A stretch of 42,720 bases of DNA from contig JACVGT010000005.1 in NCBI GenBank assembly GCA_018992685.1, positions 1 through 42,720 on the forward strand, written 5' to 3'. The position numbers and the translations under genes are program-made. Positions 26,127-40,268 of this stretch are shown piece by piece (position 1 is the stretch's first letter; each line of letters starts with the position of its first letter). This stretch comes from Theionarchaea archaeon. Lineage in GTDB: Archaea; Methanobacteriota_B; Thermococci; Methanofastidiosales; SZ-28-30. Below the pieces are notes generated by a model. It saw only the letters and a program-made list of their open reading frames with translations. It did no database searches and was not told where the DNA came from.

Positions 26127-26366
26127 GTGTCGGTTCTGGCTTTGGTTGAGATTCGGACAGAGAATGTAACATCTGTAAAGGAAAGTCTGACTGAAATGGA
26201 GTATGTTCTGGCTATTTATGAACTACTGAGTAGGTTCAATCTAGCTCTGATTGTGGAATTGGAAAATGAACAGGCACTTTTTGAGTTTATGACATTGAAA
26301 GTGCGAACAATTCCAGGAGTCAAAGAAACTAAAACCAACATTATACAGAATGGCATAGTGATCTGA
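26127..26366 (+). CDS. Second stand-alone Lrp/AsnC RAM-like domain protein
   Basis: A 79-residue protein with the same fold pattern: VLALVEIRTENVTSVKESLTEMEYVLAIYELLSRFNLALIVELENEQALFEFMTLKVRTIPGV. It is about as long as the preceding one but diverged in sequence, and no DNA-binding part is present. The start is GTG 26127 with GAGGGAG upstream; the ATG at 26125 is out of frame. It ends 1 base before the FrhB-like gene. The pair may form a heterodimer or mixed ring that senses an effector for the oxidoreductase; this is inference. Confidence 0.75.
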   Translation: MSVLALVEIRTENVTSVKESLTEMEYVLAIYELLSRFNLALIVELENEQALFEFMTLKVRTIPGVKETKTNIIQNGIVI

Positions 26367-26367
26367 C

Positions 26368-27420
26368 ATGGCGCAGGAAATGAAACTGGGATTCAGGCAT
26401 ATCGAAAAGAAACTGAAGGAAAGGATGGCTTTTAATTTCTCCCAGTTGAAAGAGGACATTATTGAGACAGGTGTGTGCACCCAATGTGGAGCATGCGCAG
26501 CCTTCTGTGACAAGATTGCTATTACAGATGGACAGCCTGTCCTGGAGGGTTCGTGTGAGCGGTGTGGAGTATGTTATGCTCAGTGCCCCAGGACGATTAT
26601 AACAGAAGAGGGGTTGGTGGGGAATTATATCGCTGCATATACCTGTAAGAGTAAGTACAGCACGATCAAAGGGCAGGATGGGGGCGTTGTCACCTCATTA
26701 CTGTGTTACTGCATGAAGGAGAATTTAATTGATGCTGCAGTGGTCACCCAGAAGAATGAAACGGAGCACTGGAAGCCGAATCCTACCTTTGTCACCAAGA
26801 TACCTGAAATCCGGAAGGCGTCAGGTTCCATTTATTGCCACAGTCTAACCATGCCGGCTCTGGTTGAAGCAGTGGAAGAAGGATATCATTCCATTGGGTT
26901 TGTGGGAACTCCCTGCAATATTGACGCAGTGTATAAGATGCAGAAGTCTCCATCCCGGCTGTTCAACTTAATGATAAAGGTCAATATTTTGCGATTTGGA
27001 TTGTTTTGCATGGACAGTTTTACCTACGAAGGGCTGAGACACTTCATTGAGAGTCGGGGTGTCAACCTGGAGAAGATAACCAAAATGGAAATCAAGGTTG
27101 GGTATCTGCATGTGTACTATGACAATTCCATGACAAAATTCAGGGTTCGTGAACTGGATGAATATCGTTCGTCATCGTGCTATTTCTGTACAGATCTGAC
27201 AGCTGAGAGTTCTGATCTGTCTTTTGGGGGAGTGGGATCACCTCCAGGTTATACAACAGTGATAACTCGATCAAATATTGGTGATGAGATTGTGAGGGAA
27301 GCGTGTGATGATGGATGGATTTCCATGGAAGAGATCGGGTTTGATGATTTTACCAAAGTGCTGAACCTTGCCAGGATAAAGAAGATACACATGTATACGG
27401 TGGCCCGCAGACGGGACTAG
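26368..27420 (+). CDS. FrhB/FdhB-like F420 or ferredoxin oxidoreductase (iron-sulfur flavoprotein)
   Basis: A 350-residue protein with two [4Fe-4S] motifs, CTQCGACAAFC (Cys37, 40, 43, 47) and CERCGVCYAQCP (Cys63, 66, 69, 73), followed by FrhB_FdhB N- and C-terminal domains: KGQDGGVVTSLLCYCMKENLIDAAVVT, GSIYCHSLTMPALVEAV, GTPCNIDAV and SCYFCTDLTAESSDLSFGGVG. This family (FrhB, FdhB, F420-dependent sulfite or glutamate reductase subunits) binds FAD and moves electrons between F420 and Fe-S clusters. The particular partner is unknown. Co-transcription with two RAM-domain proteins is unusual. The C-terminal Cys motif lies at about 268-275. Confidence 0.87.
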   Translation: MAQEMKLGFRHIEKKLKERMAFNFSQLKEDIIETGVCTQCGACAAFCDKIAITDGQPVLEGSCERCGVCYAQCPRTIITEEGLVGNYIAAYTCKSKYSTIKGQDGGVVTSLLCYCMKENLIDAAVVTQKNETEHWKPNPTFVTKIPEIRKASGSIYCHSLTMPALVEAVEEGYHSIGFVGTPCNIDAVYKMQKSPSRLFNLMIKVNILRFGLFCMDSFTYEGLRHFIESRGVNLEKITKMEIKVGYLHVYYDNSMTKFRVRELDEYRSSSCYFCTDLTAESSDLSFGGVGSPPGYTTVITRSNIGDEIVREACDDGWISMEEIGFDDFTKVLNLARIKKIHMYTVARRRD

Positions 27421-27467
27421 GCAGCGCACGATGAGGCAACTGAGCCAGCAGATGCTACCACCAGGAA

Positions 27468-28457
27468 TCAGCACACTCTGGGAACTGGGTCTGCCACAGG
27501 CTTTTCTAGAATTCGTCTCCCTCCTACGCGGGTCTTTAGCAGCACTTTATCCCCTTTCATGACTTCACCAATGAGTGAAGCGTTTCTCCCGTACTCATGT
27601 CGCTTCAATGTTTCCACCACCCCTTCTGCATCCTCGGGAGCACAGGCAATGACGACTTTCCCCTCACATGCAATCTCGAAATAGTTCAGTCCTAACATTT
27701 CCGAGGCTGCTCTCACCTCGTGTCGCACTGGGATTGCTTCTTCATTGACTTGTATTCCTACTTTCGACTTCTCACTGAATTCATTCAGTGTCTTGGCCAA
27801 TCCGCCCCTGGTGGGATCCTTCATGGCATGAATGTCATAGCAGAGAATTTCTGAAATCATGGTGTTCAGAGGTGCCACATCCGATTGCAGGGCTGTTTCA
27901 AAGCTAATCCCTTCCCTGTGTGACATAATAGCTATCCCGTGATCTCCTATGGTGCCTGAAACTATAATCCTGTCACCTACTGTAATGCCGGTATCAGTGA
28001 TGACGTTTTCTGTGATTCCAATCCCTGCAGTGGTGATGATCACTGAGTCTCCTGCAACTTTTGTGTCTCCGCAGATAATGGATACTCCGGCCTCTTCACA
28101 TACCTTATCCATGGAACGGAGGATTTCTTCTAGGTGAGACACGTCCATTCCTTCAGGAAGAACCATCGCATTTGATAGTGCCAGAGGGGTGGCCCCCATG
28201 ACAGCGAGATCATTGATAGTCCCGCAGACTGCCAGTTTTCCAATGTCTCCACCCGGGAAGAAAATGGGATCAACAGTATGTGCATCTGTTGTAAAAACAA
28301 GAGTGGTACTGTCAAGGGGGATGGTACCTGAGTCATCGAGTTCATCCAGGCCCAATCCTGTCCTGCATCTTCTGTGAAGCAGGTTCTTGAGGACAGTGGT
28401 GTGGAGGAACCTGTCCATTTCTTCCCCCCCTGCGCCGTGCTCTTTCTTGATAATCAT
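27468..28457 (-). CDS. hypE: Hydrogenase maturation protein HypE
   Basis: A 329-residue PurM-like enzyme. HGAGGEEM at the start (residues 7-14), LVFTTDAHTVDPIFFPGGDIGKLAVCGTINDLAVMGA, SIICGDTKV and MKDPTRGGLAKTLNEF are signature segments, and the chain ends PRVC, matching the essential C-terminal Cys. HypE dehydrates its thiocarboxamide to the thiocyanate that gives the CN ligands of [NiFe] hydrogenase. No hypF or hydrogenase gene is next to it here. The TATA-like TTTTTAAATA (about 28475-28484) predicts a leaderless start at 28457. Confidence 0.95.
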   Translation of the reverse strand: MIIKKEHGAGGEEMDRFLHTTVLKNLLHRRCRTGLGLDELDDSGTIPLDSTTLVFTTDAHTVDPIFFPGGDIGKLAVCGTINDLAVMGATPLALSNAMVLPEGMDVSHLEEILRSMDKVCEEAGVSIICGDTKVAGDSVIITTAGIGITENVITDTGITVGDRIIVSGTIGDHGIAIMSHREGISFETALQSDVAPLNTMISEILCYDIHAMKDPTRGGLAKTLNEFSEKSKVGIQVNEEAIPVRHEVRAASEMLGLNYFEIACEGKVVIACAPEDAEGVVETLKRHEYGRNASLIGEVMKGDKVLLKTRVGGRRILEKPVADPVPRVC

Positions 28458-28804
28458 GAGGGAGTCTTTTTCTGACTATTTAAAAAGGTTGAAGGTTGTT
28501 GTGGAACAGGCTCTGTAGGACTCGTTGTACGAGAAATGAACAATGTCTTGCGGGCTCTCTACTTGCTTTGTAGCTATTTTTCGACCCTTTTCTGTGATTT
28601 CTTTCGCAGTTTGTTGGGCTATTTCTGAGGTCGAAGACAGTATTTCTATTCATCAGGGAAGTGGGAGAAGAACGGACTCCAACCTCTAGGTAGCATGAAG
28701 ATCCCTTTTCGGATTACAAGGTCACATGACGCTTTGAACGTGTATTTCATGTTTGTTTATATCTTCAATGCAAAATCTTATAAGCTGAGGGGTGTAGATG
28801 CGTC
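28458..28804. other. Divergent intergenic region, no gene
   Basis: Between hypE and the DUF998 gene are two divergent promoters: the hypE TATA box near 28478 and CTTATAAG at 28777-28784 on the plus strand. The middle holds only a small CTCGT-TGT-ACGAG hairpin (about 28519-28531). I see no coding sequence. Confidence 0.5.
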
Positions 28805-29549: not shown

Positions 29550-29667
29550 GGTACGGCGGTCACAGCGGAAGGGCCACACCCGTTCTCATTCCGAACACGG
29601 AAGTTAAGCCTTCCAGCGATTCGGGCTGTACTGCCATAGGTGGGAACCCCGAGACGCTGCCGGCCCT
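29550..29667 (+). rRNA. 5S ribosomal RNA
   Basis: About 118 bases with the conserved 5S elements: GGTACGGCGGTCACAGCGG at the 5-prime end, GGCCACACCCG, CCGAACACGGAAGTTAAGCC, and a 3-prime end CGCTGCCGGCC that pairs with the start. The sequence is close to Thermococcus-type 5S RNA as I remember it. No 16S or 23S gene is nearby, so this 5S is orphaned from an rRNA operon, a common arrangement in archaea. It is transcribed together with, or just before, tRNA-Asp. Ends are accurate to a few bases. Confidence 0.93.
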
Positions 29668-29673
29668 TTTTTT

Positions 29674-29748
29674 GCCCGGGTGGTGTAGACCGGACTATCA
29701 TACGGGACTGTCACTCCCGTGACTCGGGTTCAAATCCCGGCCCGGGCG
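29674..29748 (+). tRNA. tRNA-Asp (anticodon GTC)
   Basis: A 75-base cloverleaf. The acceptor stem GCCCGGG pairs perfectly with CCCGGGC (29741-29747). The anticodon arm is CGGGA-CTGTCAC-TCCCG with anticodon GTC, and the T loop is GGTTCAAATCC. The discriminator base is G, as expected for tRNA-Asp, and the CCA end is not encoded (GCA follows). It lies 6 bases after the 5S rRNA, so the two may be one transcript. The accessory region begins right after it, but I found no repeated copy of its 3-prime end. Confidence 0.95.
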
Positions 29749-29949
29749 CATTCTCCGTGGCTTTGATGCTCTTCTCCCTTTTTATGGACTTTAATGTCAT
29801 GAAGCCTTTGCAGAAGGCTTTGATCGCTTGCAGAAAGCTTTACAATCCAAAAAATGTTATGATATATGGTATTCTCATATTTTTCTACGGAGAAATAGAG
29901 GATGAAATCCACCCTGATTTTTTGATTAAGAGAAATCATATTGTTTTGA

Positions 29950-30307
29950 CAAGATTAACTTGTTATATCCAGTGGTTGGTTGGTTATCAGCAGTGTCGTC
30001 CAGTCCCCGAACGTGTCGACCACATCAACTACCGAAGGAAAATGGCTCAGGGCAGGGAATGTCTTCGTTGGATCAGAGAAGCTACCAGATACGCGTACTC
30101 TCTGTAAATGGGAGTGGGTTTCATCCTCAAAGAGGGACCCAGAAGACAGCCCTGTTCCTGCATCTCGTGCAGATACTTGGAGACCGTGTTCCTAGAGTGT
30201 CGTGTGTTCCGAGCTATCTCATAGAGAGGTATCAGTGGGTCCTGGTACACCTGCTCATAAATGCGGTGGCACCGCTGCAGCCTATTCAGAAAGGATGTCT
30301 CACTCAT
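29950..30307 (-). pseudogene. Decayed helix-turn-helix protein (family A), frameshifted
   Basis: The first reading frame gives MSETSFLNRLQRCHRIYEQV and a helix-turn-helix-like segment (IPLYEIARNTRHSRNTVSKY) up to YREYAYLV. The sequence then continues in another frame as SFSDPTKTFPALSHFPSV, then DVVDTFGDWTTLLITNQPLDI, before a stop near 29950. The shift is at about 30080. A second copy of the same family is seen at 31360-32019 (YVYLVNSSNPLGLFREY aligns with YAYLV-x-FSDPTKTF). The protein family seems to be an archaeal regulator with an N-terminal helix-turn-helix; I do not recognise its name. Only the N-terminal portion remains here. Confidence 0.55.
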
Positions 30308-31359
30308 CAATTCCACCCATTAGAGCCAAATTTATCAGAGTCTCCCTCCATGCCTTCCAGGAAGAATAGGATCCTCCTGTCCACCACACATCCTCTGGTG
30401 AAGAGGTAAGATATTTGTTGATGAATGCTCCAATATTTCAGCAATTTTTCTGGTGTGAAGATTCCGCTCATTTTATGACTTTCTTGTGGATCTTTCTTTC
30501 CGTCGTGAGGACGGGGGTGAGAAACTGGGCACGGAGTGGTGAAGGGAGGTTCACAGCCCAGTTCCTCGAGGTAGTTCAAGCGGAAGCCTTTCCACCTGGA
30601 TCATGAGTTTGGTGGCGGTGATATCCTCTGTGTGAGCACCATACGAGGGATAGGAAGCGTGGTCTCAAAGGGAGCAATTCCGGGCTTCCATGAAGGATCG
30701 AACCCATTCTCTCAGTCCTTTCCGCTTCCACGTCACTGACTGTCATGATCACATGGTTGAGGCACTTGCTCTCCAGTTCATCGCGACAGTAGGTGCCAAT
30801 CAAGAGAAAAGTAGGTTATTTCGTTCACTGATAAGAAGCTCTCCTCATTAGGTCGTGCGATCTATCGCCAGTATCCAATACATTCCGTACACAATAGATT
30901 AATATACTTTAAGGCCGAAAAAATGTGACAGTACCCTATAAAAGGAAAGAAATCAAGAGGTGTGGGAGATCTGGGAAACAAGTCTAAGGAGGTAAAATCC
31001 ATGGAAATGGTAACTTGTTGCTGCTTTGGACCAGATCCCCACCTGTGACATCTAAATTCAGTGTTCTAGGAGCCAGAGCGATAACTATTCTCATACCAGT
31101 GTTTGCCGGCTCCCTCAAAGAGGAGAAAGATTCTCGAAATGAATCGCTCTTAGCTCGATTTCCTATACTTCACTATTTATTACACTAATATTTATGGTTT
31201 TCTATCAATTAAGTGCAAGAATCCCCATAAAAGAAGAGGAAAGAGATCTCATCCGGAAGGGCAACTTCTGGGGAGAACCCACGATGTTTTTTCTCCTAGT
31301 ACTCTTTCGTGAATTTATCCACCGTAAATCGAACATGAGAATTCTTGGAGTACTCCTGA
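30308..31359. other. Degenerate region without an intact gene
   Basis: About 1 kb with no gene that I can support. On the minus strand, 30576-30803 reads as broken coding sequence that makes sense only by switching frames (for example DELESKCLNHVIMTVSDVEA, then EWVRSFMEARN, then DITATKLMIQVERLPLELPR), so another pseudogene is likely. On the plus strand, a TATA box (CCTATAAAAGG, 30934-30944) and an AAGGAGGT site precede a 15-codon frame, MEMVTCCCFGPDPHL (31001-31048), possibly the stump of a deleted gene. Confidence 0.4.
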
Positions 31360-32019
31360 CTAGTCAAGTTCCTTCCTCCAGTAGTATTCTTTTCTTGTTT
31401 GATTCTCCTTTCTTACGATTCCCCTCTTGACCAAGGCTTCCACCAGAAAGGGGTGCTGGATACCAGGAATGTCTTCAAGACGAGTTGTTACCCTTTCTAT
31501 CGGCTTTTTGGGTGTCCTTTCGTGACAGATCAGAGAGGTTGATGCCCTTTGAAAACAACAGGTGGTGGGTAGTTCAGAGAAGAGATCAATGATGAAATCT
31601 TCGTAATCCATTTCAAAGATATGTTGGTAAGGATCACAGGCATTGATTGTCTCAGGAAAATAGGAGGTGGCAATGGTACAGTACATGGGGAGCCTTTCGA
31701 GGAACTCAATGCCATATCCACCCCTTATGTGATACTTCTTCTTTACGAGGGGCTCCAGGGGACATTTCCCCATGGATTGTACCATCAATGTCAAGGTTCA
31801 TATCTGAGACCACCCAAACATTGCAGAGTCTTTCCAGGATCTTATGGTAGAGTACGTGATTGTCCTTGATGTATTCTCTGAACAGTCCGAGAGGATTGGA
31901 AGAATTAACCAGGTACACGTAGGTCTTGAAACTAGAGAATGACTTCTTCCTGATCTGGGGTCCCGCGATATATCCGTTTTCGACTGCCTCTCTTAGCCTT
32001 TCTCCAACACTTCTGAAGT
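31360..32019 (-). pseudogene. Truncated, frameshifted copy of regulator family A
   Basis: Coding signal starts directly behind the methyltransferase stop: DFRSVGERLREAVENGYIAG, then the YVYLVNSSNPLGLFREY and LCNVWVVSDMNLDIDG segments that match the family A copy at 29950-30307. After about 31780 the sense continues in a second frame (YGIEFLERLPMYCTIATSYF, then DYEDFIIDLFSELPTTC) and ends ALVKRGIVRKE-YYWRKELD at 31360. Thus it has lost its N-terminal helix-turn-helix, carries a frameshift and probably an internal deletion. The cut lies inside the HTH segment and coincides with the edge of the restriction-modification cassette. Confidence 0.6.
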
Positions 32020-32958
32020 CTATGAGCCACTTCCAATAGCTGCATCTAAGCTTTCTTGAGTAGTTAGAGGCTTGTATTCTCCGCTGATGGCCCCCGCTCC
32101 AGGTTCATATCTGTATTGTTCGAAGACATCAAGGATAGTTCTGCTTATATTCCCCGATTCAAACTTTCCATGCTCCGAGAGTCTCCTGATTATTGGGGTG
32201 CAATCTCCGATTTCTGAGCCTATCCAATGTCTATGGTTTAGCTCGGCCTGGATATAGGTGGACCCGCCACCGCCAAAAGGATCCAAGACTATGTCGTGGT
32301 GAGAAGTCGACATTAGAATTGCTCTTTCTGGTATGATTGGCTTGAGTTCATTTGCCGATCTCTTCTTGAACTTCCTGTGTCTTACTGGAGAAGTGTCGTC
32401 CCAGAAATCAGTAAGATTCAGTCCTTTTGGATTTAGCTTGTCTCTGTGCCCTCCATAATCTCTTATTTCACCACCACAATGACGGCAGGTTGGTATTGGG
32501 GTCCTTAGTTTGTTGAAAGTCTTGGGTTCACCCTTTGTGTAGTACAAAAGACCGTAATGTGCAGGATACAGCTTCTTGCCTCTGGGAAACGTATTCTTCA
32601 TGCAAATGGCAATCCAGTGACGGAAGTCCAGGTACTGGTCCAAATAAGCACCGAATTGCACACACCACCTTGGAATATTATAAATGAACAAGCTTCCACC
32701 AAGTTTGAGAACTCTTATACACTCGTCCATCCAAGAGTATGCCCATTCCAGATACTCTTTGTCATTCATTGAATCATCAAATCTTTTCGTGTTGTAATTC
32801 TTCTTTAGATTGAAAGGTGGATCACAGAAAATCATGTCAATAGAAGAATTTCGAATAGTTGAAAGAAGATCCATACAGTCGCAGTTAAAAAGAACTCCCA
32901 GTCTCGAGACACATGCCGCACTCATGAAATCCTTCCCATTTGCACTCACTGAGATCAT
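32020..32958 (-). CDS. Type II DNA methyltransferase (beta class) of BamHI-like R-M system
   Basis: A 312-residue DNA amino-methyltransferase. Catalytic motif IV DPPFN is at 46-50 (with flanking DMIFC and LKKNYN), and the SAM-binding motif DPFGGGGST at 226-234 comes later, so the order IV before I is the beta class. A DPPF motif is more typical of N6-adenine enzymes than the SPPY of N4-cytosine enzymes such as M.BamHI. A probable zinc-binding CRHCGGE (158-164) lies in the target-recognition region, followed by NLTDFWDD. It should protect host DNA against the nuclease at 33449. A TATA-like TTTTAAAG (about 32980-32987) is 26 bases before ATG 32958. The stop is directly followed by a truncated pseudogene. 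Confidence 0.9.
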   Translation of the reverse strand: MISVSANGKDFMSAACVSRLGVLFNCDCMDLLSTIRNSSIDMIFCDPPFNLKKNYNTKRFDDSMNDKEYLEWAYSWMDECIRVLKLGGSLFIYNIPRWCVQFGAYLDQYLDFRHWIAICMKNTFPRGKKLYPAHYGLLYYTKGEPKTFNKLRTPIPTCRHCGGEIRDYGGHRDKLNPKGLNLTDFWDDTSPVRHRKFKKRSANELKPIIPERAILMSTSHHDIVLDPFGGGGSTYIQAELNHRHWIGSEIGDCTPIIRRLSEHGKFESGNISRTILDVFEQYRYEPGAGAISGEYKPLTTQESLDAAIGSGS

Positions 32959-33107
32959 GCATGTTCCTTGTCCCTGACCTTTAAAAGCTTGATGCTTTGT
33001 CTCTCTACCAACTCTCCAAGATTGTGAGCGAATAAGAACGGAGCCACTATTCATTTACTCTTGTAGAGGTAAAACAGTAAAGTTCCCAATATCAACCATA
33101 ATCTTTG

Positions 33108-33383
33108 TTATTCCCCTTGAATTCCTAATACAGCAGTGGAAATTTCCCTTCCTGTTTCTGTTAGGTCATATAGCCTACCTTTTCGAGCCTTTGGATTAAG
33201 ACACTCTACAAGATCTTGATCTCTTAGCCCTTTCAAGACATTGCTTACATGACCGATTCCAATCCCACAGATCTGGGACAATTGCTTTGGTGTCAAGGGG
33301 CTGTCTTTCAAGGCTAGAATGATCTTTCTTCGATAGATGCTTGCTAGCACATAGCCAATGCTTTTCCAGTCTTCTTCGTCCAT
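33108..33383 (-). CDS. Winged-helix regulator, probable controller of R-M system
   Basis: A 91-residue winged-helix protein of the ArsR/MarR type: SIGYVLASIYRRKIILALKDSPLTPKQLSQICGIGIGHVSNVLKGLRDQDLVECLNP, then the wing KGRLYDLTETGREI. It lies between the methyltransferase (149 bases downstream) and the divergent endonuclease gene and so probably takes the part that XRE-type C proteins play in other R-M systems. ATG 33383 follows an AT-rich TATA stretch at 33403-33412 and is leaderless. The 66 bases to the endonuclease start contain both promoters and a perfect palindrome. Confidence 0.82.
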   Translation of the reverse strand: MDEEDWKSIGYVLASIYRRKIILALKDSPLTPKQLSQICGIGIGHVSNVLKGLRDQDLVECLNPKARKGRLYDLTETGREISTAVLGIQGE

Positions 33384-33448
33384 TAGGCCACAATAGTAAT
33401 ATCATATTAAATATATAAACACACTTTACACTCTTGAAGAGTGTCTGA
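33384..33448. promoter_or_regulatory. Divergent R-M promoter with 17-bp palindromic operator
   Basis: An AT-rich block (33403-33420, TATATTTAATAT-like on one strand and TAAATATATAAAC on the other) can act as the TATA box for both genes. ACACTCTT-G-AAGAGTGT (33428-33444) is a perfect palindrome with 8-bp arms over the expected endonuclease transcription start (about 33440) and ends 4 bases before its ATG. Binding there would repress the nuclease and leave the regulator promoter open. Confidence 0.65.
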
Positions 33449-34111
33449 ATGGTAACTAACTTTTTATTTCTTTGTTTTTTTTCTATAGCTAGGGAGATTC
33501 TCTTGAAATATGTCAAGTTGAAAATACTGTTCTCATCAGACTCATTCATAGAATCAGAAGAATGGAAAATGATACATGGGCAACTGCAGAAAGCAATAGA
33601 ATCGGTCAAGTGGCCTCCTGGATCTGACAAATTTCTACTATATCCTGAATCTGGGAAGAAGAGAGGGATGGGGAATGGAGTCAGACCAATCAAGAGAGCT
33701 TTTATTAGAACACTAGGCAATTTTGGGTGGAATGTTGAAGAGAAGATTCAAATAACTAATAACAAGAGATGGGGAAAAGTCGACGTTTCAAGGAAATTGG
33801 ATAGCAAGTGGTTCGTGGTGGAATGGGAAACTGGTAATATCTCGTCTAGCCATCGGGCCCTTGAAAAAATGGCACTAGGAATGCTAACAAACGTATTTCT
33901 AGGAGGTATTCTTGTTGTGCCAACACGGGAAATGTACAATTATCTGACCGATAGAGTTGGCAACTTTGAAGAACTTGAACCTTATTTTCCCCTTTATATG
34001 AGTTTAAATTTCAAGGATGGTCTTTTTGGAATAATCGCGGTCGAACATGATGGATTAAGCGAAGATACCCCGAGAATACCAAAGGGAACAGATGGCAGAG
34101 CTCTGGTATGA
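33449..34111 (+). CDS. BamHI-like type II restriction endonuclease
   Basis: A 220-residue protein whose second half is strikingly like BamHI (213 residues). WETGNISSSHRALEKM (126-141) corresponds to BamHI FETGNISSAHRSMNKL, YNYLTDRVGNFEELEPYF (163-180) to YYLTDRVTNFEELEPYF, and IPKGTDG (210-216) to IPKGSDG. The active-site acids Asp94, Glu111 and Glu113 of BamHI match Asp112, Glu125 and Glu127 here (VDVSRK, VVEWETGN). Base-contact residues recalled for BamHI (Asn116, Ser118, Arg122, Asp154, Arg155, Asp196) all have equivalents, so cleavage at GGATCC is predicted. The N-terminus (1-35) is hydrophobic and may be partly untranslated; a later start is possible. It lies opposite the winged-helix gene and the methyltransferase. 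BamHI comparison is from memory, not a search. Confidence 0.88.
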   Translation: MVTNFLFLCFFSIAREILLKYVKLKILFSSDSFIESEEWKMIHGQLQKAIESVKWPPGSDKFLLYPESGKKRGMGNGVRPIKRAFIRTLGNFGWNVEEKIQITNNKRWGKVDVSRKLDSKWFVVEWETGNISSSHRALEKMALGMLTNVFLGGILVVPTREMYNYLTDRVGNFEELEPYFPLYMSLNFKDGLFGIIAVEHDGLSEDTPRIPKGTDGRALV

Positions 34112-38270: not shown

Positions 38271-40268
38271 ATGAAGAAAAAGATGCTATGTATACTTATC
38301 TTGGCAGTGATGCTAGGGCTGACTTTTCCTACAATTTCTTCCGAAAATGACAGTCTTTCAATAGAATACCAGTTTACTTCAGTGATACGGGAAGGTCAGG
38401 TTGTGGTAGAGAATACCATTCTTGAAGAAATACCTGGAGAACCGCTAGTGCCCTACCGAGTTGCCAGAATTCTGCTTCCCCAGGGTACAGACGTGAAGGA
38501 TGTCACAGTCACCCAGGGTGAATCCATCATTCAGGAAGGATTTGAGATTCCATGGGGCCAACCCGCCTGTATCCTCAGTGGAAAACCTCAAAAAGTGGGA
38601 CGAAACGAAGCGACCTACAGCTCCAATGAATGGTACCACAAGACCCTGTACGATGTCATCACAGTACAATCTTTCAGAGGGTTTCAAATCTTGTATGTAC
38701 ACTTCTACCCCCTACAATATCGGCCACAATCTGGCACTGTAAAATTCTATACCACACTGACAGTGCATGTACACCTGCAAGAGAGTTCACAGAACCCATT
38801 GTACAGGGGGCTGGAAGATGACAAGAAAGATGCTGCGTGCATGGTAGACAATCCTCAAGTATTGGAGACGTATGAGAGTGTCGTGCCCCTCATAGACACG
38901 AAAGAATACATCATCATCACAAACAGTACAATGGCCCCTATATTCCAGCAATTAGCTAACCACAAAACAAATCACCTCAACAGCGCAGGCGTTTATGACG
39001 TCCAATGGATATACTCGACCTACACAGGGTATGACAATGCAGAGAAAGTAAGGAACTTCATCAAAGATATGTATCAAACCCACAGTACAAGGTGGTGTTT
39101 GCTAGGTGGGGATGTTTCTGTTGTTCCTTACAGAGGGTTCCTCTGCATATGTTCTCCGAAGGTGGATTACGATCTGGAAGCCGACATGTACTTTGGATGC
39201 CTAGATGGTACCTTTGATGCAGACGGTGATCATGTCTACGGTGAACCCTGTGACAATGTCGACTGGTTGGAAGAGGTCTTTGTCGGTCGAGCTCCAGTAG
39301 AATCCACAGCTGAAGCTCAGATGTTCGTCAACAAGACCATCGCGTATGAGCAAAGTGACAAACCAAAGGTGTGCCAGTTTCATCAAGCACGACTCGAACC
39401 AGACAACTACCCGGATTCGAGACAGGTAGCATATGACTGTGAGTACTGGACGCCTTGGTACTACACGAAGAGAAGACTCTTTGAAGAATACGGCAACGTA
39501 TCAAAAGACGACTGGAGAAATGCATGGGCTGGGAACCCACTGATAGTCCAGCACACCGGTCATGGACTCCCCACATTTTATCAGATCAACATGGTTGTTG
39601 GAGAGTCTGTAGCATGGACTACTGCAGATGTGCCCACCTTGAGTAATACGTTCAAACCAGTTCACATGTCAATGGCCTGTCTCAGTGGGGAGTTTTCCGT
39701 CAACGACTGTCTGGCTGAAGAATATGTCAAAGATGATTGTGGAGCTGTTGCGTGCATGATGAATTCTGGATATGGCTTTTATTCCTCAGTAGATGCATCT
39801 AAGTACAGTGGGGACTTCCTTGAGACTATGTTCAGGGGTCTATTCTCAGATCACAAACAGCACCTGGGTGAATTACTCAATCAGGCAAAAAGCTACTGGG
39901 TATCTGCTGCAGAGTCTAGTTCTGTGTACAGGTGGTGCTACTATGAGATTAACCTACTCGGTGACCCTGAGACACCTGCTATTTCAAGAAGCCTGGTGAT
40001 ATACCTCAGCGGTCCTCAGTATCCTCCCGAATATTCAAGCCCTACCTATACGGTTACTGTCGAAATGGGGAAAGGGAATTTCGATTACTACTGGTACATG
40101 AATGGAGGGCTGATCAAGTACACTCTCAATTCAAGCAACTGGACAGATTCATGTACTCTTGGAACGGTGTACAAGCAATTCACCATCAGTGTGTACGTGT
40201 ATGATAGGGGAACTGGCTCGAGCGCCACTGCATCCATGATAGTATACCCTGGAGGAACGCCGCCTTGA
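38271..40268 (+). CDS. Exported C25-family (gingipain-like) cysteine protease
   Basis: A 665-residue secreted protein. The signal peptide is 1-22 (LAVMLGLTFPTIS). The N-terminal part (about 25-200) resembles the Propeptide_C25 region (VPYRVARILLPQGTDVKDVTV). The catalytic domain (about 210-570) begins KEYIIITNSTMAP and contains LLGGDVSVVPYRGF, EEVFVGRAPV, the His motif VQHTGHG (His431) and the Cys motif MSMACLSGEF (Cys470), the order expected of the clan CD caspase-gingipain fold. A C-terminal Ig-like beta domain (about 585-665) closes the chain. The residue choice before cleavage is unknown. It likely degrades external protein or processes surface proteins. Confidence 0.88.
   Translation: MKKKMLCILILAVMLGLTFPTISSENDSLSIEYQFTSVIREGQVVVENTILEEIPGEPLVPYRVARILLPQGTDVKDVTVTQGESIIQEGFEIPWGQPACILSGKPQKVGRNEATYSSNEWYHKTLYDVITVQSFRGFQILYVHFYPLQYRPQSGTVKFYTTLTVHVHLQESSQNPLYRGLEDDKKDAACMVDNPQVLETYESVVPLIDTKEYIIITNSTMAPIFQQLANHKTNHLNSAGVYDVQWIYSTYTGYDNAEKVRNFIKDMYQTHSTRWCLLGGDVSVVPYRGFLCICSPKVDYDLEADMYFGCLDGTFDADGDHVYGEPCDNVDWLEEVFVGRAPVESTAEAQMFVNKTIAYEQSDKPKVCQFHQARLEPDNYPDSRQVAYDCEYWTPWYYTKRRLFEEYGNVSKDDWRNAWAGNPLIVQHTGHGLPTFYQINMVVGESVAWTTADVPTLSNTFKPVHMSMACLSGEFSVNDCLAEEYVKDDCGAVACMMNSGYGFYSSVDASKYSGDFLETMFRGLFSDHKQHLGELLNQAKSYWVSAAESSSVYRWCYYEINLLGDPETPAISRSLVIYLSGPQYPPEYSSPTYTVTVEMGKGNFDYYWYMNGGLIKYTLNSSNWTDSCTLGTVYKQFTISVYVYDRGTGSSATASMIVYPGGTPP

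What the first reader, a model, noticed from the sequence alone, without database searches (positions are those of the whole stretch)
32020..34111. Complete archaeal BamHI-like restriction-modification cassette
The endonuclease keeps the BamHI active-site acids (Asp112, Glu125, Glu127) and equivalents of the residues recalled as base contacts in BamHI (Asn, Ser, Arg in ETGNISSSHR; Asp-Arg in LTDRV; Asp in PKGTDG), which predicts GGATCC cleavage. Its methyltransferase has a DPPF motif instead of the SPPY of M.BamHI, so it may protect the site by adenine methylation, an unusual pairing for a BamHI isoschizomer. At least six GGATCC sites lie in the window (for example 3171, 13863, 22774, 27814, 30369 and 32279), so the host needs protection.
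Basis: partly seen in the sequence, partly recalled or inferred. Interest (0 to 1): 0.78.

Follow-up and report, generated by a model that had tools for sequence, protein, structure and literature searches.

The report
Archaeal BamHI-type restriction-modification system
An uncultured archaeon carries a complete, normal-looking BamHI-type restriction-modification system that was probably acquired from bacteria; its methylase is the usual kind for this enzyme family, and the one odd feature is a different sort of regulator gene where bacteria often keep the standard controller.

Summary
The cassette is real. The endonuclease belongs to Pfam BamHI (E 2e-54), is 50% identical to OkrAI and 36% to BamHI, and keeps every checked BamHI catalytic and base-contact residue in register, so GGATCC cleavage is a strong prediction. 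Its start is probably TTG 33503, not ATG 33449. The neighbour (32020-33054, minus) is a beta-class amino-methyltransferase with DPPF. The claim that DPPF is an unusual partner implying adenine methylation is not supported: of 93 BamHI/OkrAI-family loci, 83 carry this same DPPF family, including Geobacillus plasmids whose endonuclease is 72% identical to BamHI. Published methylomes of GGATCC systems report m4C, and BamHI ignores adenine methylation of GATC. I expect GGAT(m4C)C, though no measured enzyme with a verified DPPF sequence was available. GGATCC is not avoided in the genome. The system is rare in archaea (1 of 115 genomes of the phylum). The distinctive part is regulatory: 56 of 93 loci have an XRE C-protein gene directly upstream of the endonuclease, whereas here a winged-helix (ArsR/MarR-like) gene is co-directional with the methyltransferase, with a perfect 17-bp palindrome in the divergent promoter. 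New member of a known kind.

The parts
33503..34111 (+). BamHI/OkrAI-family endonuclease, 202 aa from TTG 33503 (the ORF from ATG 33449 is 220 aa and probably overlong)
   Evidence: PF02923 E 2.4e-54; OkrAI 50%, BamHI 36% identity; catalytic and contact residues in register; start supported by 78 rows
32020..33054 (-). beta-class DNA amino-methyltransferase with DPPF motif IV; the true start may be M33 (32958) or another internal ATG
   Evidence: PF01555 E 4e-34; PADLOC MTase_II E 8e-99; same family beside 83 of 93 BamHI-family endonucleases; alignment starts in relatives
33108..33383 (-). 91-aa winged-helix (ArsR/MarR-like) protein, upstream of and co-directional with the methyltransferase; candidate regulator
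   Evidence: HTH_5 E 5e-6; no homologue near any other BamHI-family endonuclease; relatives in related archaeal genomes, best 35% identity
33428..33444 (.). perfect palindrome ACACTCTTGAAGAGTGT, candidate operator
   Evidence: unique in the genome at 0-1 mismatch; 0.5% of shuffles of the interval, about 1% of equal-sized window tiles
33408..33419 (.). A/T-only stretch (TATTAAATATATAAA region) that could serve as TATA box for both divergent promoters
   Evidence: read directly from the sequence; inference only
32279..32284 (.). GGATCC site inside the methyltransferase gene, one of 7 in the window

Best explanation
This is a type IIP restriction-modification system of the BamHI/OkrAI family, acquired by an archaeon from bacteria. 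The endonuclease dimer cuts unmodified GGATCC with the BamHI catalytic set (residue register shown; activity inferred). The DPPF beta-class methyltransferase protects the same site, most likely as GGAT(m4C)C (inferred). The winged-helix protein encoded with the methyltransferase probably stands in for the bacterial C-protein: by binding the 17-bp palindrome between the divergent promoters it would hold back the endonuclease promoter while leaving the methyltransferase promoter open (inferred from position only).
For: Family and residue register. Universal pairing of this endonuclease family with this methyltransferase family or with SPPY methyltransferases. A 72%-identical BamHI homologue paired with a DPPF methyltransferase. 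m4C measured at GGATCC in other systems (PMC7380536; PMC6873887; PMC3646050). BamHI cuts irrespective of GATC methylation (PMC5809426). Rarity in archaea and bacterial relatives in the trees. C-protein upstream of the endonuclease in 56 of 93 loci but not here; winged-helix gene and palindrome in that place.
Against: DPPF and the nearest solved relative, MboIIA, are typical of adenine methyltransferases. No measured m4C enzyme could be shown here to carry DPPF. No activity or expression data. The regulator and operator link is positional only, and comparable palindromes occur in about 1% of window tiles. Many cyanobacterial relatives manage without any C-protein, so a regulator may not be needed.
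Confidence: 0.8

Rival explanations
1. One reading: the methyltransferase makes GG(m6A)TCC and this endonuclease, unlike BamHI, is blocked by that mark.
For: Motif IV DPPF and nearest solved relatives MboIIA and other adenine enzymes. 29 relatives carry both the DPPF and an SPPY methyltransferase, which could mean two different marks. One review table lists M.BamHI as m6A (PMC12114051).
Against: Endonuclease contacts identical to BamHI, and BamHI is not blocked by GATC methylation (PMC5809426). Measured GGATCC systems are m4C (PMC7380536, PMC6873887, PMC3646050). The DPPF family also guards a 72%-identical BamHI homologue.
Confidence: 0.17
2. The winged-helix gene is an unrelated host gene or a passenger, and the system is unregulated or regulated by other means.
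For: No homologue of it near any other BamHI-family locus. About 29 relatives, mainly cyanobacterial, have no C-protein. Frame-broken winged-helix-like fragments lie nearby at 29640-31918, so such genes may be common in this region.
Against: It sits between the two genes, 53 bases from the methyltransferase ORF and on its strand, with a genome-unique palindrome in the shared promoter.
Confidence: 0.5
3. The cassette is bacterial contamination or a mis-joined contig.
For: The genome is a 45-contig assembly, 91% complete, and the same-genus genome has no BamHI-family member.
Against: Flanking genes on the same contig include archaeal types (Trm5, F420 hydrogenase beta subunit), the left flank at 26300-28497 is 83% identical to the same-genus genome and parts of the right flank are 80-86% identical. 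The gene inside the cassette has an archaeal homologue.
Confidence: 0.04

Closest known systems
OkrAI (PDB 3odh), a BamHI isoschizomer
   Same: 50% identity over almost the whole protein, same length class (no extra C-terminal part), all catalytic and contact residues
   Different: bacterial; activity of the window protein not measured
BamHI (PDB 1bam) with M.BamHI and C.BamHI
   Same: family, active site, base contacts, divergent gene arrangement of homologues such as the Geobacillus plasmid systems
   Different: 36% identity; no XRE C-protein here; methylated base here unmeasured
BamHI-like system of Geobacillus plasmids pGeo12b and pSJEF4-2-1
   Same: BamHI-family endonuclease with divergent DPPF methyltransferase, 52.8% identical to the window's
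   Different: an XRE helix-turn-helix gene lies directly upstream of the endonuclease; plasmid-borne, beside an IS630-type transposase
MboIIA methyltransferase (PDB 1g60)
   Same: best solved relative of the methyltransferase, E 2e-21 over the catalytic core
   Different: annotated as adenine-specific, another recognition site, DPPY motif
ArsR/MarR-like winged-helix regulators of archaea
   Same: HTH_5 match E 5e-6; homologue of 35% identity in a same-order genome
   Different: that homologue does not lie in a recognised restriction-modification locus on the 3.2 kb held (L097)

Membership tests
BamHI/OkrAI type IIP endonucleases | match to PF02923 above the curated cut-off | tested here: met
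   183.8 bits against 22.8
BamHI/OkrAI type IIP endonucleases | catalytic set E77, D94, E111, E113 of BamHI | tested here: met
   all aligned and identical; nearly invariant in 93 rows
BamHI/OkrAI type IIP endonucleases | base-contact residues N116, S118, R122, D154, R155, D196 (contact roles recalled, positions tested) | tested here: met
   all identical and in register
BamHI/OkrAI type IIP endonucleases | cleavage of GGATCC | not testable with these tools
   needs purified protein
Type II restriction-modification system | cognate methyltransferase gene next to the endonuclease | tested here: met
   intact beta-class methyltransferase of the family found beside 83 of 93 relatives
Type II restriction-modification system | methylation of the same site blocks cleavage | not testable with these tools
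   needs modification calls or an assay
m4C amino-methyltransferases | SPPY motif IV (shared by most, not all by definition) | tested here: not met
   motif is DPPF; so assignment to m4C rests on function and homology arguments, not on this motif
m6A amino-methyltransferases | DPPY-type motif IV | tested here: inconclusive
   DPPF is compatible, but the motif alone does not fix the base; M.NruI and M.Sbo13I share DPPY and are assigned to different bases (PMC2890505)
C-protein-regulated restriction-modification systems | XRE-type C-protein gene directly upstream of the endonuclease | tested here: not met
   profile from 9 relatives finds none in the window, but finds one in 56 of 93 loci

The most novel reading that the evidence does not exclude
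After transfer into an archaeon, a BamHI-type system exchanged its bacterial C-protein for a host-type winged-helix regulator acting on a single 17-bp operator that lies between the TATA box and start site of the endonuclease promoter and upstream of the methyltransferase promoter: a one-operator switch suited to archaeal transcription.
Probability: 0.35. Interest if true: 0.5.

Novelty: new member of a known kind. Interest (0 to 1): 0.3.

Why it matters
It adds a rare archaeal member to the BamHI/OkrAI family and corrects the idea that DPPF is an odd partner: DPPF methyltransferases are the standard guardians of this endonuclease family, which makes the family a good test of whether motif IV predicts the methylated base. 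If the winged-helix regulator works, it would show how a bacterial system whose controller depends on bacterial promoters is rewired for archaeal transcription.

Tried and rejected
GGATCC avoidance as a sign of restriction pressure: rejected. 489 sites in 3.03 Mb against 469 in the 2.8 Mb same-genus genome without the endonuclease, and the window count equals the maximal-order Markov expectation; the dinucleotide-shuffle deficit (7 against 15.8) disappears at higher order. Finding the M.BamHI or M.OcrK2I sequence to settle DPPF against SPPY: not possible; no BamHI match in phages or viral contigs, only homologues in plasmids, no motif in papers, and the OkrAI paper is not held. Empty-site comparison with the same-genus genome: inconclusive, because its contig ends where synteny is lost. 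Archaeal 16S gene: not in the assembly, so archaeal identity rests on TFIIB and neighbours. Second SPPY methyltransferase as part of this system: present in 37 relatives, absent here. No structure prediction was run, since 50% identity to a solved structure already fixes the residue register.

Full report
Observation. The window holds an intact open reading frame on the plus strand (ATG 33449 to 34111) and one on the minus strand (32020-33054). The first is a BamHI-family endonuclease: PF02923, E 2.4e-54, 183.8 bits against a cut-off of 22.8. It matches the solved OkrAI and BamHI sequences at E 5e-55 and 1e-21, with 50% and 36% identity. The catalytic and base-contact residues of BamHI (their roles are recalled knowledge) all fall in register, and these columns are nearly invariant across 93 rows. 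The endonuclease start should probably be moved to TTG 33503: that version aligns from residue 1 in 78 rows, where the facing residue is M, V or L, and an AGGGAG stretch precedes it. The extra 18 residues of the longer version are a hydrophobic stretch.

Methyltransferase. The minus-strand protein is a beta-class amino-methyltransferase (PF01555; PADLOC MTase_II E 8e-99) with motif IV FCDPPFNL and motif I DPFGGGGST. A scan of bacterial and archaeal species genomes gave 80 loci (of 181 candidates) and viral contigs gave nine. None of the 80 record titles names an archaeon. With the window and plasmid loci, 93 loci have the endonuclease: 54 have only the DPPF methyltransferase, 29 have it together with an unrelated SPPY methyltransferase, 8 have only the SPPY one, one (L035) has another SPPY enzyme, and one (L090) lies near a contig end. 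DPPF is therefore the usual partner. Two Geobacillus plasmids pair it with an endonuclease 72% identical to BamHI itself.

Which base is methylated. Motif IV and the nearest solved relative (MboIIA) lean to adenine. Against that, M.OcrK2I modifies GGATCC as m4C (PMC7380536), Bacillus velezensis strains with the BamHI system show m4C calls at 98-99% of GGATCC sites (PMC6873887), and M.BamHI is listed as GGAT(N4mC)C (PMC3646050). A footnote in PMC6873887 argues for m5C and one review table lists m6A (PMC12114051); both disagree with the other sources. BamHI is reported to cut GGATCC irrespective of GATC methylation (PMC5809426), so an endonuclease with the same contacts would hardly be blocked by m6A. 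I put m4C at about 0.8. The missing link is the sequence of a measured enzyme, which I could not obtain.

Host and origin. The assembly is archaeal: two TFIIB genes, found among the control genomes only in archaea, and archaeal-type neighbours in the window (Trm5, F420 hydrogenase beta subunit). No other genome of the 115 searched for the phylum has the family. In the methyltransferase tree the window pairs with an Anaerolineales sequence (100/97) within a group of Chloroflexota and cyanobacteria (100/98). The endonuclease tree places it, without strong support, beside the same Anaerolineales sequence (the tool warns of long branches). Horizontal acquisition from bacteria is the simplest reading. 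GGATCC is not depleted.

Regulation. In 56 of 93 loci an XRE C-protein gene lies directly upstream of the endonuclease, including nearly all divergent arrangements inspected and the closest methyltransferase relative, L036. The window has none. Instead a 91-aa winged-helix protein (HTH_5 E 5e-6) is encoded on the methyltransferase strand; among 20 related genomes it has two relatives, the better 35% identical. Between it and the endonuclease lies a perfect palindrome, ACACTCTTGAAGAGTGT at 33428-33444, unique in the genome at 0-1 mismatch. Such a palindrome is seen in 0.5% of shuffles of the interval, and about 1% of equal-sized tiles of the window hold a comparable one. Relative to the A/T-only stretch around 33408-33419, and assuming the usual archaeal spacing of about 26 bases from TATA box to start site (recalled knowledge), the palindrome would cover the start region of the endonuclease transcript and lie upstream of the regulator-methyltransferase promoter, whose transcript would be nearly leaderless. 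A protein bound there should block the endonuclease and spare or help the methyltransferase. This is inference from position and is scored as such.

Verdict.

Noticed in passing
L002-L081, for example L005:4625-6007 (minus): 37 of 93 BamHI/OkrAI-family loci carry a second, unrelated methyltransferase of about 455 aa with DPMMGSGT and SPPYSFAI motifs; 29 have it beside the DPPF enzyme and 8 have it alone, so one endonuclease family swaps or doubles its guardian.
   Followed up: partly
L023 and L038:3566-4732: The DPPF methyltransferase is fused at its N-terminus to an XRE (C-protein-like) domain.
   Followed up: no
29640-31918: Several minus-strand ORF fragments in different frames, one with a weak winged-helix match (30047-30316, HTH_24 E 5e-4), look like decayed regulator genes next to the cassette.
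   Followed up: partly
L077:3974-4597: The endonuclease gene of the Herpetosiphon aurantiacus DSM 785 locus is split between two ORFs while its methyltransferase is intact.
   Followed up: no
L093 (Klebsiella michiganensis 5.5-kb plasmid): A DPPF methyltransferase of this family with no annotated or detected BamHI-type endonuclease on a small plasmid; possibly a solitary protective methylase.
   Followed up: no
38271-40268: 665-aa secreted protein that resembles C25-type (gingipain-like) peptidases by eye; related DNA recurs at many places in the same-genus genome, suggesting a multicopy family.
   Followed up: no
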